Of a DNA stretch of 64,000 nt, positions 33,110 to 41,789 are shown one piece after another. The notes below the pieces were generated by a model that made no database searches, was not told the origin of the DNA, and saw only the letters and a program-made list of their open reading frames with translations. The translations under genes and the position numbers were made by a program. Source of the stretch: Modestobacter roseus (lineage in GTDB: Bacteria; Actinomycetota; Actinomycetes; Mycobacteriales; Geodermatophilaceae); contig NZ_VLKF01000001.1 of the NCBI RefSeq assembly GCF_007994135.1, positions 2,604,001-2,668,000 of the forward strand, read 5' to 3'. Positions within the stretch are counted from its first letter, which is position 1. Each line of letters begins with the position of its first letter.

Positions 33110-33265
33110 GCCGCGGACCCCGGTCCGCACCGGGTCGAACGACCTCCGCCGTCCACCCACCGGACACGACCTCCCGGGCCGACCGGGCCGGTCCGGGCGG
33201 CCCGACGGCTCACCCGCCTGGCGGAGGGGAGATCACTTCGACGTGCCCACCTGTGCGGATGTGGA

Positions 33266-33271
33266 TAGCGT
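33266..33271 (+). promoter_or_regulatory. Leaderless-type -10 box of glgE
   Basis: TAGCGT, 7 bases before ATG 33279. It lies downstream of the alternative GTG at 33243, so that longer start would not be transcribed from this promoter. Confidence 0.6.
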
Positions 33272-33278
33272 GGCCGCG

Positions 33279-35285
<2,007 letters not shown>

Positions 35286-35395: not shown

Positions 35396-37254
<1,859 letters not shown>

Positions 37255-37255
<1 letters not shown>

Positions 37256-38625
37256 TGACTGCGGTGACCGACCTGCTGGCCGGCTGGATGCCGGGACAGC
37301 GCTGGTTCGGGGGCAAGGGCCGCGACTGGGCCGAGGTCAGCGACGAGGGGTTCTTCCTCGACCAGTCCGACCCGGTGCTCTCCGTCCACCGCGTCCAGAT
37401 CACCTACACCGACGGGGCGACCGAGACCTACCTCGTGCCCCTCTCCTGGCGCGAGTCGCCGGCCGAGGAGCTGGCCGGTGCCTTCATCGGCGCGGTGACC
37501 GGTTCCAACGGCACGGAGAACTACGCCTACGACGCGATGCGCGACCGCGAGGCCACCGTCCCGTGGCTGACCCACCTGGTGGCCGCCTCCACCGTGGGCC
37601 CGATGCGCTTCCACCCGGCCGGGGTCGCGCACATCCCCGAGGGGCTGCCCGGCGACATCATCTCCACCGAGCAGAGCAACACCTCGCTGGTCTACGGCGA
37701 GTCGGCGATCCTCAAGCTGTTCCGCCGGCTCGAGCCCGGGCTCAACCCGGACGTCGAGATCCACGACGCGCTGCGCCGCGCGGAGAACCCGCACATCGCC
37801 GGGCTGCTCGGGCACATCGAGATCGACGGCGCCCCCGGCGAGGAGCCGGCCACCGTCGCGATGCTGCAGACCTTCGTGCCCAACGCCAGCGACGGCTGGC
37901 GACTGGCCACCTCCAGCGTGCGCGACCTGTACGCCGAGGCCGACCTGCACGCCGACGAGGTGGGCGGTGACTTCGCCGGGGAGAGCGAGCGGCTCGGTGA
38001 GGCGACCGCCTCGGTGCACGCCGACCTCGCCCGGGTGCTGCCGACCGAACCCGCCGACCGGGACTGGTACCGCACGCTGGCGGAGCAGATGACCCAGCGG
38101 CTGGACGCGGCGCTCGCCGTCGTCCCGGACCTGGCCGAGCACGCCGATGCGCTGCGGACGCTCTACACCGCGGTGGCCGGCACCGAGGAGCCGGTCACCC
38201 GCCAGCGGGTGCACGGCGACCTGCACCTGGGCCAGGTGCTGCGCACCACCAGCGGCTGGATCGTGCTGGACTTCGAGGGCGAGCCGGCCCGACCGCTGGC
38301 CGCCCGGCGCGAGCTGGACACCCCGCTGCGCGACGTGGCGGGGATGCTGCGCAGCTTCGACTACGCCGCGCGGCACATGCTCGTCGAGCAGCCCGACGAC
38401 CCGCAGCGCGCCTACCGCGCCCAGGAGTGGGCCGAGCGGAACCGGGCCGCCTTCTGCGCGGGCTACTCGGCCGCGGGCGGGGTGCCGCTGGCGGCCGACT
38501 CGGCCCTGCTGCGGGCGTTCGAGGCGGACAAGGCGGTCTACGAATGCGTCTACGAGGCGCGCAACCGGCCGCACTGGTTGATGATCCCGCTCAGCTCGTT
38601 GTCCCGGCTGACCTCCGGCGACTGA
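37255..38625 (+). CDS. mak: Maltokinase
   Basis: 456 residues (Pep2/Mak). It phosphorylates maltose to maltose 1-phosphate with ATP, supplying GlgE. N-terminal cap '[19 protein letters not shown]', catalytic loop '[13 protein letters not shown]' with the base Asp, and metal site '[29 protein letters not shown]' are all intact, as is '[23 protein letters not shown]'. The ATG overlaps the treS stop as TGATG, so translation is coupled; this rejects the longer open frame that starts within treS. Confidence 0.96.
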
Positions 38626-38681
38626 TCCGCCGACGCGGCCGGCGACGACCACAGACCACCGAGAAGCACCTGGAGACACCG

Positions 38682-41600
38682 ATGAGCACCGAGGACACGC
38701 AGGGGAACCCCCCCGACGCGGAGCCGGCCGGCAAGGACGAGCTGATGCGCCGGGTCGAGGAGAAGACGGCCGCCGTCCAGGAGGCCGCCACGACCGACGA
38801 GAACGCCACCGAGGCGGCGCCGCCGGCGAAGAAGGCCACCCGCAAGGCCGCCGCCACGAAGGCCCCGGCGAAGAAGGCCCCGGCCAAGAAGTCCCCGGCC
38901 AAGAAGGCGGCCGCCGCGACCGCTGACGCCGGTGCGCAGAGCGAGCTGCCCACCGAGGCGGCGCCGGCCACGAAGGCCACCAAGCGGACGACGAAGAAGG
39001 CAGCTGCGGCCGCCGCTGACGGCGACGCCGCCCCGGCCAAGCGCACGCGGAAGGCCGCCGCCAAGAAGGTGACCGCCGCGCCCGTCGTCGCCCCGGCGCC
39101 GATCGCCGAGCCCGGCGACCCGACCGCGCCGTCGGCCCCGCAGCCGGAGCCGCCGAGCCCCGACCCGGCCGAGCCGAGCACCCCGCAGGCGCCGGAGGAC
39201 GGCGAGCACGCCGGTACCGGGGGCAGCTCCCCGGCCGAGACCGCCTCCGAGCCGGGCGCGGAGAGCGCGCCCGACACGGTCGGCGCGCCGGACAGCCAGG
39301 CGTCGGCCCCCGAGCCGACGACGGCGGAGACCGCCACCGCCGACCTGGTCGTCGGCGAGGTCACCGACCTGCCCCCCGCTCCCGGTGAGGCCCCAGAGCC
39401 TGCCGCCACCGAGCTGGTCGCGGCGCTGCCGGAGGGCGAGACCCCGGTGAGCACCTCGGTGCCCGCCGACGCCACCCCGGCCGGTCGCGAGGTGTCCGGC
39501 GAGGAGCTGCGCGCCGTCGTCGAGGGCTGGTCCTACGACCCGCACGGGGTGCTCGGTGCCCACCGACTGCCCGAGGGCTGGGCGGTCCGCACCCTGCGGC
39601 CGGACGCCGTGGCCGTGGTGGTCGTCGACCAGGACGGCACCCGGTACGAGGCCCACCAGCTGCACGGTGGCGGCGTCTACGAGGCGCGACTGCCCCAGCA
39701 GCCCGGTGACTACCGGATCGAGGTCGTCTACCCCAACGGGGACGGCGGCACCGACACCTACACCGTCGACGACCCCTACCGCTGGCTGCCCACGCTGGGC
39801 GAGGTCGACCAGCACCTGATCCGCGAGGGCCGGCACGAGAAGCTGTGGACCGTCCTCGGTGCGCACGTGCGCCACTACGACACCCCCGGCGGCCCCGTCG
39901 ACGGGGTGTCCTTCGCCGTCTGGGCGCCCAACGCCCGCGGCGTGAAGGTCACCGGCGACTTCGACTACTGGGAGGCGCGCGCCTACCCGATGCGGTCGCT
40001 GGGCTCCTCCGGCGTCTGGGAGGTCTTCGTCCCCGGCGTGCAGGTGGGCACCCGCTACCGGTACCACGTGCTGGGCGCCGACGGTCAGTGGCGGGTGAAG
40101 AGCGACCCGATGGCGTTCGCCACCGAGGTGCCGCCGGCCAACGCCTCCGTCGTCACCGAGTCCACGCACGAGTGGCACGACGACGCGTGGCTCGCCTCCC
40201 GCGCCGAGAGCCGCTGGCACGAGCGGCCGATGAGCGTCTACGAGGTGCACGCCGGCTCGTGGCGGCAGGGCCTGTCCTACCGGGAGATGGCCGACGAGCT
40301 CGTCGCCTACGTCAAGGACGCCGGGTTCACCCACCTGGAGTTCATGCCGCTGGCCGAGCACCCCTTCGGCGGCTCGTGGGGCTACCAGGTCACCTCCTAC
40401 TACGCCCCCACCTCGCGCTTCGGCAGCCCCGACGACCTGCGCTACCTGATCGACGCCGCCCACCAGGCCGGCATCGGCGTCATCGTCGACTGGGTGCCGG
40501 CACACTTCCCGAAGGACGACTGGGCGCTGGCCCGGTTCGACGGCACCCCGCTGTACGAGCACGCCGACCCGCGCCGCGGCGAGCAGCCGGACTGGGGAAC
40601 CTACGTCTTCGACTTCGGCCGGAACGAGGTGCGCAACTTCCTGGTCGCCAACGCGCTGTTCTGGGCCAAGGAGTTCCACATCGACGGCATCCGGGTCGAC
40701 GCCGTCGCCTCGATGCTCTACCTGGACTACTCGCGCAACGACGGTGAGTGGACGCCGAACGAGTACGGCGGCCGGGAGAACCTGGACGCGGTCTCCTTCC
40801 TGCAGGAGATGAACGCGACCGTGTACCGCGAGGTGCCCGGCGTCGTGACCATCGCCGAGGAGTCGACCGCCTGGCCGGGCGTCACCCGGCCCACCTACCT
40901 CGGCGGCCTGGGCTTCGGCTTCAAGTGGAACATGGGCTGGATGCACGACTCGTTGGGCTACATGGCCAACGCGCCGATCTACCGCAGCTACCACCACGGC
41001 CAGCTGACCTTCTCCCTGGTCTACGCGTTCTCGGAGAACTACGTCCTGCCGATCAGCCACGACGAGGTCGTGTACGGCAAGGGCTCGCTGCTGCGGAAGA
41101 TGCCCGGTGACCGGTGGCAGCAGCTGGCCAACCTGCGCGCCTACCTGGGCTACATGTGGGCCCACCCGGGCAAGCAGCTGCTGTTCATGGGCTCGGAGTT
41201 CGGGCAGCTGTCGGAGTGGGCGGAGAGCCGCTCGCTGGACTGGTGGCACCTCGACGACCCGGCGCACCGCGGCGTGCTCGACCTGGTCCGCGACCTCAAC
41301 ACGGTCTACAAGGAGACCGAGGCGCTGTACTCCCAGGACGTCGATCCGGCGGGCTTCCAGTGGATCGACGCCAACGACGCCGGCGGCAACACGCTGACCT
41401 TCCTCCGGTACGGCAAGGACGGCCAGGTGCTGGCCTGCATCGTCAACCTCTCCGGCAACCCGCACCACGACTACCGGGTGGGCCTGCCGCGGGGTGGCCG
41501 CTGGCGCGAGCTGATCAACACCGACTCGGAGGGCTACGGCGGGTCCGGCGTGGGCAACTTCGGCGGGGTCGACGCCGTCGCCGAGGCGTGGCACGGGCAG

Positions 41601-41789
41601 CCGTGGTCGGCGACGCTCACCGCGCCGCCGCTGGCCACCGTGTGGCTGGTGCACGAGGGCCCCGAGCCCGAGCTGCCCGACTCCGGCGTGCCGGCGGACC
41701 AGGCTCAGATCGCCGCCGCCGAGGCCTCCGGTGCCGCCGAGGGCCCGGGCACCGGTCTGGAGCCAGCACAGCCCGACTCCCAGGAGTGA
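38682..41789 (+). CDS. glgB: 1,4-alpha-glucan branching enzyme with a 270-residue histone-tail-like extension
   Basis: 1035 residues against about 730 for typical GlgB. Residues 1-49 are acidic. Residues 50-76 and 97-130 are Lys/Ala-rich ([47 protein letters not shown]), like histone H1 or the tail of actinobacterial HU. Residues 131-270 are an acidic Pro/Glu/Ala linker. From about 271 ('[26 protein letters not shown]') a normal GH13_9 enzyme follows: CBM48, '[22 protein letters not shown]', nucleophile Asp in '[17 protein letters not shown]', Glu in '[12 protein letters not shown]' and '[15 protein letters not shown]'. The frame is unbroken; ATG 38682 has GGAG about 8 bases ahead. A GTG at 39492 could start a normal-length form. 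Last gene before a strong terminator. Confidence 0.95.

What the first reader, a model, noticed from the sequence alone, without database searches (positions are those of the whole stretch)
38682..39491. Glycogen branching enzyme fused to a histone-H1/HU-tail-like domain
GlgB has 270 extra N-terminal residues in an unbroken frame: two Lys/Ala-rich blocks (50-76, 97-130; [21 protein letters not shown]) and a 140-residue acidic Pro/Glu linker. Such tails occur on actinobacterial HU and the mycobacterial adhesin HBHA, where they bind DNA or sulfated glycans. Attached to a glucan-branching enzyme they could tether glycogen granules to the nucleoid, polyphosphate or cell wall. A GTG at 39492 may give a second, normal-length form.
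Basis: partly seen in the sequence, partly recalled or inferred. Interest (0 to 1): 0.75.

Follow-up and report, generated by a model that had tools for sequence, protein, structure and literature searches.

The report
Disordered lysine-rich arm on GlgB
In one family of actinobacteria the enzyme that branches glycogen carries a long floppy arm with histone-like lysine repeats and a conserved proline-rich motif; it may tether the enzyme to something negatively charged and to a partner protein, but this is untested.

Summary
glgB (38682-41789) encodes 1035 residues; 1-270 precede the first GlgB domain. The arm is real protein: 100 of 100 readable glgB genes of nine genera of the family (taken as Geodermatophilaceae) have one, all with ATG; dN/dS is 0.19-0.51 in 16 Modestobacter pairs. 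Nine rows of three deep-branching genera lack it. It is a disordered arm, not a domain (AlphaFold2: core mostly above 80, arm mostly 28-41): short helix (18-38), two AKKA-type lysine blocks, acidic spacer, and a proline box, [15 protein letters not shown], its best-conserved stretch. One genus lost the lysines in 9 of 9 rows but kept the box; the gene tree makes this a loss. The other five carriers of AKKxxAKK in this genome are Ku, TopA, a helicase-like protein, a sigma-70 factor and ribosomal L4. A second start at GTG 39492 is not supported. Long 'Type 3' extensions are in print, genuineness left open (PMC6339891); my searches found no mention of lysine tails on GlgB. Best reading: polyanion tether plus docking motif, untested.

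The parts
38682..41789 (+). glgB, 1035 codons plus stop: arm (1-270), GlgB_N, CBM48, GH13 catalytic part, alpha-amylase C domain
38672..38675 (+). Shine-Dalgarno-like GGAG, 6 nt before ATG 38682
   Evidence: read; SD-like stretch at -4 to -15 of the ATG in 87 of 100 rows, of the junction codon in 18 of 100
38733..38795 (+). predicted helix, residues 18-38 ([12 protein letters not shown]...)
   Evidence: blocks of pLDDT 60-76; residues 17-34 mean column frequency 0.66
38823..38909 (+). lysine block 1, residues 48-76, net +11
38970..39071 (+). lysine/arginine block 2, residues 97-130, net +9
39072..39197 (+). proline box, residues 131-172 ([16 protein letters not shown]...[12 protein letters not shown]), best-conserved part of the arm
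   Evidence: mean column frequency 0.75; pN/pS 0.21-0.50 in four genera
39198..39491 (+). acidic Pro/Ala/Thr spacer, residues 173-270, poorly conserved
39492..39494 (+). GTG proposed as second start; read here as a valine codon
39501..41654 (+). GlgB_N to Alpha-amylase_C, ordinary GlgB core
37252..38625 (+). mak (maltokinase), directly upstream, other frame, 56 nt before glgB
35396..37255 (+). treS with a conserved acidic C-terminal tail
33243..35285 (+). glgE (start not refined)

Best explanation
Residues 1-270 are a translated, disordered arm on an otherwise ordinary GlgB encoded beside the GlgE-pathway genes glgE, treS and mak. Shown by sequence: it is coding, kept across nine genera, built of helix, polycation, proline box and acidic spacer, and the lysines can be lost while the box stays. 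Inferred: the lysine blocks bind polyanions without sequence preference (DNA, RNA or ribosomes, polyphosphate), as like repeats do in TopA, HupB and HBHA, and so hold the branching enzyme and the glucan it works on at a site in the cell; helix and box are docking motifs for a partner protein, not yet known. The acidic spacer may screen the lysines or act as a flexible hinge.
For: 100 of 100 readable rows in nine genera carry an arm of 72-335 residues with ATG start; dN/dS 0.19-0.51 in 16 Modestobacter pairs. Lys count 10-21 per arm in the 91 rows outside genus g9, with AKKA or AAKK in 91 of 91, although GC of this arm is 79% and 1414 of 1420 Lys codons over the 100 arms are AAG. Other genes with AKKxxAKK in this genome: Ku, TopA, a ResIII-domain helicase-like protein, sigma-70, L4; the reversed pattern gives 0. 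The AKKA-bearing C-terminal domain of HBHA is needed for its DNA binding (PMC10665949, passages); TopA without lysine repeats leaves DNA more readily (PMC7398561, passages). Box and helix are on the whole the slowest parts. AlphaFold2: core well folded, arm not, helix 18-38.
Against: No binding test exists. Genus g9 does without the lysines (9 of 9 rows). The arm as a whole is net negative (-15). The motif also stands in trigger factor and in a CoxG-domain protein of family members, so it is no sure sign of nucleic-acid binding; and one of four non-g9 genomes searched (G088, Modestobacter) has no AKKxxAKK in GlgB, its lysines being spaced otherwise. Ribosomal RplV, with AKKA repeats, did not bind DNA in PMC10665949. 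GlgB is not named in the main text of a Streptomyces coelicolor nucleoid proteome (PMC3784963, term search; supplements not seen). 14 of 100 rows miss my strict box pattern (7 in g4, 3 in g3, 1 each in g2, g5, g10, g12), some by one residue, at least six truly. Block 2 and the spacer evolve fast.
Confidence: 0.4

Rival explanations
1. Pathway scaffold: helix and box dock GlgB onto an enzyme of the GlgE pathway (TreS, Mak or GlgE), and the lysines only strengthen this by meeting acidic tails such as that of TreS.
For: glgE, treS, mak and glgB lie together. TreS has an acidic C-tail with an SVAxSLLxAGVV-like motif in 20 of 20 loci that I chose (net -7 to -13). The box is kept where the lysines are lost.
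Against: No co-loss: 7 of 7 g9 loci examined keep the acidic TreS tail though their GlgB has no lysine blocks. No complex was predicted or tested.
Confidence: 0.25
2. Self-regulation: the arm folds back, lysines against acidic spacer or acidic core, and tunes chain transfer or solubility of GlgB without an outside partner.
For: Opposite charges in one chain (+9 before, -24 from the box on; core net -36). GlgB N-terminal domains are linked to chain-length choice (PMC6339891, Results and Discussion read).
Against: AlphaFold2 gives no confident place for the arm on the core. Does not explain a conserved box.
Confidence: 0.2
3. Low-complexity drift: GC-rich repeats that grew in a tolerant N-terminus, without function.
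For: Length varies from 72 to 335; spacer and block 2 have pN/pS up to 0.99 and 0.83.
Against: Box pN/pS 0.21-0.50, helix 0.35-0.53; Lys codons run against the GC bias; an arm in 100 of 100 rows.
Confidence: 0.1
4. Two forms of GlgB by a second start at GTG 39492.
For: A GTG is in frame at the domain border.
Against: The codon is GTG in 22, GTC in 56 and another in 22 of 100 rows; SD-like stretch in 18 of 100 against 87 of 100 for the ATG, and none in this window.
Confidence: 0.03

Closest known systems
'Type 3' glycogen branching enzymes with an N0 region (PMC6339891)
   Same: more than 100 residues before the N1 (GlgB_N) domain; mostly in Actinobacteria
   Different: That paper took N0 for a possible further CBM48-like domain, could not model it and left its genuineness open; the word lysine does not occur in its main text. 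Here the extra part has no Pfam match, is predicted disordered, lysine-rich and under selection.
Lysine repeats of actinobacterial TopA (PMC7398561)
   Same: lysine repeats near acidic residues; TopA of this very genome has them
   Different: C-terminal, on a DNA enzyme, where they hold TopA on DNA
HupB and HBHA lysine tails of mycobacteria (PMC10665949)
   Same: AKKA/PAKKA repeats
   Different: C-terminal, on small DNA-binding proteins; the HU found in this genome has no such tail
Streptomyces GlgB with a lysine-rich N-terminus (L111, L121; P0074)
   Same: KKAxAKK tail before the same enzyme
   Different: the box is not seen in the stretches printed for L111 and L121; only 2 of 12 Streptomyces loci in the capped list have the tail
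GlgB of PDB 3k1d (Mycobacterium tuberculosis, organism recalled)
   Same: matches residues 275-990 of this protein from its residue 9 on
   Different: no arm in the solved chain

Membership tests
GlgB, GH13 branching enzyme with N1 and CBM48 | GlgB_N, CBM48, catalytic and C domains over curated cut-offs | tested here: met
Type 3 branching enzyme (PMC6339891) | 100 or more residues ahead of N1 and CBM48 | tested here: met
   270 residues
Type 3 branching enzyme (PMC6339891) | N0 as a further CBM48-like domain (the authors' suggestion, not their definition) | tested here: not met
   no Pfam match for residues 1-270 at E up to 1; no PDB sequence match at E up to 0.01; arm pLDDT mostly 28-41
Histone H1/HupB/HBHA-type lysine tails | repeated AKKA/AAKK/PAKK motifs | tested here: met
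   3 AKKA, 1 AAKK, 4 PAKK in residues 1-145
Histone H1/HupB/HBHA-type lysine tails | DNA binding by the tail | not testable with these tools
   needs a gel shift or similar
Nucleoid-associated protein | found on the nucleoid | not testable with these tools
   no localisation data here; GlgB not named in the main text of PMC3784963

The most novel reading that the evidence does not exclude
GlgB of this family is tethered by a histone-like arm to nucleic acid or polyphosphate, and by its proline box to a dedicated partner, so that carbon storage is laid down at a chosen place in the cell; one genus has lost the polycation, and basic GlgB tails arose more than once in actinobacteria.
Probability: 0.2. 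Interest if true: 0.75.

Novelty: new variant of a known kind. Interest (0 to 1): 0.5.

Why it matters
Long GlgB N-termini have been listed but doubted; this family shows one that is real, selected and modular. A genus that lost only the lysines is a ready natural control. If the arm tethers GlgB, it would give a handle on how bacteria decide where glycogen is made.

Tried and rejected
Mak-GlgB fusion remnant: mak ends in another frame 56 nt upstream. Second start at GTG 39492: see rivals. The box elsewhere in this genome: next match after GlgB at E 0.175. HU tail: the one HU found has none (two earlier scripts, printed nothing for it). Lysine-acid co-loss between GlgB and TreS: not seen. The first AlphaFold2 run had too shallow an alignment (mean pLDDT 51.7) and was not used; the second (74.9) was. 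A search for a name of genus g9 gave none. The gene tree used 57 rows that I chose: 45 of the family (37 with arms plus g6-g8, g10, g12) and 12 outgroup rows. Alignment A2 for AlphaFold2 has 60 rows, 23 of them full-length with the arm; of 41 outside rows first chosen, four with a stop near the end were left out.

Literature: searches gave no paper; the listings showed none on lysine tails of GlgB (titles and abstract starts only). The library holds only open-licence PubMed Central papers. Seen: PMC6339891 abstract, passages, Results and Discussion; PMC10665949, PMC7398561, PMC9638933 and PMC3784963 passages by term; PMC11046441 term counts only (first 300,000 characters); all others search listing only.

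Full report
Observation. The genome (4.5 Mb, 2 contigs) gave one full-length GlgB match; three further matches are partial, at 25-32% identity. The frame is open from ATG 38682 to the stop ending at 41789. Pfam places GlgB_N at 274-366, CBM48 at 392-478 and the C domain at 894-991; nothing matches residues 1-270. NCBIfam gives for 1-270 only two matches far below cut-off, to sigma-factor models (E 0.15 and 0.32). The lysine density is not chance: no other stop-free stretch of 100 or more codons in the 64 kb reaches 8 Lys in 29 residues; glgB reaches 10, and 1000 codon shuffles of it reached 7 at most.

Is it translated? 112 of 112 genomes of the family have a GlgB match. The family is taken as Geodermatophilaceae from the names of matches. 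I read the upstream part in 110 rows, 109 genomes (G070, G095 and G097 had only partial genes and were not fetched). 100 rows have an arm of at least 60 residues, 100 of 100 starting with ATG; they span nine genera. The ten others are nine rows of genera g6-g8, two of them (L201, L203) flagged as cut by contig ends, and L023, cut by its contig. An SD-like stretch stands at -4 to -15 of the ATG in 87 of 100 and of the junction codon in 18 of 100. The junction codon is GTG in 22, GTC in 56, another in 22. dN/dS of the arm in 16 pairs that I chose within g1 is 0.19-0.51, against 0.08-0.37 for the first 180 codons of the core. Genus g1 is taken as Modestobacter because L056 (Modestobacter sp. VKM Ac-2986) and a contig of the g1 genome G099 share the length 498516, and the nearest named protein hits bear that name. 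A database search with the arm gave 72 proteins, 72 of 72 with GlgB domains (only the 7995 candidates sharing most words were scored, and candidate length was limited).

Anatomy. Over 100 aligned arms, the mean frequency of the commonest residue is 0.66 for residues 17-34, 0.75 for 131-172, 0.57 and 0.35 for the lysine blocks and 0.21 for 201-270. pN/pS of the box is 0.21, 0.35, 0.50 and 0.39 in g1-g4, of the spacer 0.57, 0.73, 0.92 and 0.99; the alignment of fast parts is uncertain, which raises pN. Synonymous change in the box (pS 0.36-0.48) is like that of the other parts (0.28-0.55), so the protein rather than the DNA is kept. The strict box pattern is found in 86 of 100 rows (20/20 g1, 22/23 g2, 13/16 g3, 19/26 g4, 3/3 g11, 9/9 g9; 0 of 1 each in g5, g10, g12); several misses differ by one residue, others (L164, L165, L169, L150, L170, L024) truly lack it; L164 and L170 lack the helix too. 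AlphaFold2 with 60 rows folds the core well (blocks mostly above 80) and leaves the arm at 28-41 apart from the helix at 18-38 (60-76) and the last block (59). Low confidence is consistent with disorder; it does not prove it.

Loss of the lysines. 9 of 9 g9 rows have 1-2 Lys in the arm and no AKKA/AAKK, yet match the box; the six printed also keep the helix sequence. In a 57-row gene tree g9 lies inside the arm-bearing clade, with g1 and g5 (98/90), so this is a loss, if the gene tree is right. g9 has not lost such repeats in general: 7 of 7 g9 genomes searched (of 9) have 4-9 AKKxxAKK matches elsewhere and none in glgB. Of the 67 matches in 11 genomes, 30 came with loci that I read; in g9 they lie in Ku-, TopA- and trigger-factor-like genes (one Ku and one trigger factor checked by Pfam, the rest named by likeness).

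Company. In this genome AKKxxAKK gives 11 matches in six genes, the reversed pattern none: GlgB, Ku, TopA, a ResIII-domain helicase-like protein, a sigma-70 factor, ribosomal L4. Against this, a CoxG-domain protein carries it in a g4 genome (L290), and the GlgB of one g1 genome (G088) does not match this pattern. The one HU found has no lysine tail.

Outside the family. Of 40 order-level loci that I picked, 8 have other basic GlgB tails (RASRARKP, RAPRKP, RKRAPRK or KKAAKKAA type): 4 of 7 in f4 and 4 of 4 in f10. Of the 80 named loci (a capped list), 4 are Geodermatophilaceae with the arm; 2 of the other 76, both Streptomyces, have a strongly lysine-rich stretch before GlgB, and two more (L087, L104) a weak one (read back to the in-frame stop, so an upper bound).

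Meaning. In print, long GlgB N-termini form a 'Type 3' group, 147 of 9006 sequences, mostly actinobacterial, whose genuineness the authors left open; 'lysine' does not occur in the main text (PMC6339891). My searches found no paper on lysine tails of GlgB. So this is a new variant of a known kind. The tether reading rests on analogy with TopA (PMC7398561), HBHA and HupB (PMC10665949) and on the company above; it is the likeliest single reading, at 0.4, and the conserved helix and box point to a protein partner that is unknown.

Noticed in passing
window 37091-37252: TreS has an acidic C-terminal tail of about 50 residues with a conserved SVAxSLLxAGVV-like motif, seen in 20 of 20 family loci that I chose.
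   Followed up: partly
window 41652-41786: GlgB also ends in an acidic tail of 45 residues, net -10, low in AlphaFold2 confidence.
   Followed up: no
L292, L293, L296, L297 (g9 genomes): Trigger factor with a lysine/alanine-rich C-terminal tail (family checked for L292, the others named by likeness).
   Followed up: no
L290:718-1974 (g4 genome G047): CoxG-domain protein carrying AKKxxAKK.
   Followed up: no
L243, L245, L246, L256 (f4); L221, L227, L229, L232 (f10): GlgB of two other families of the order has basic N-terminal tails with different repeats.
   Followed up: partly
G000:C1:3596898 (L207): Helicase-like protein (ResIII match) with a run of [20 protein letters not shown] ahead of the domain.
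   Followed up: no
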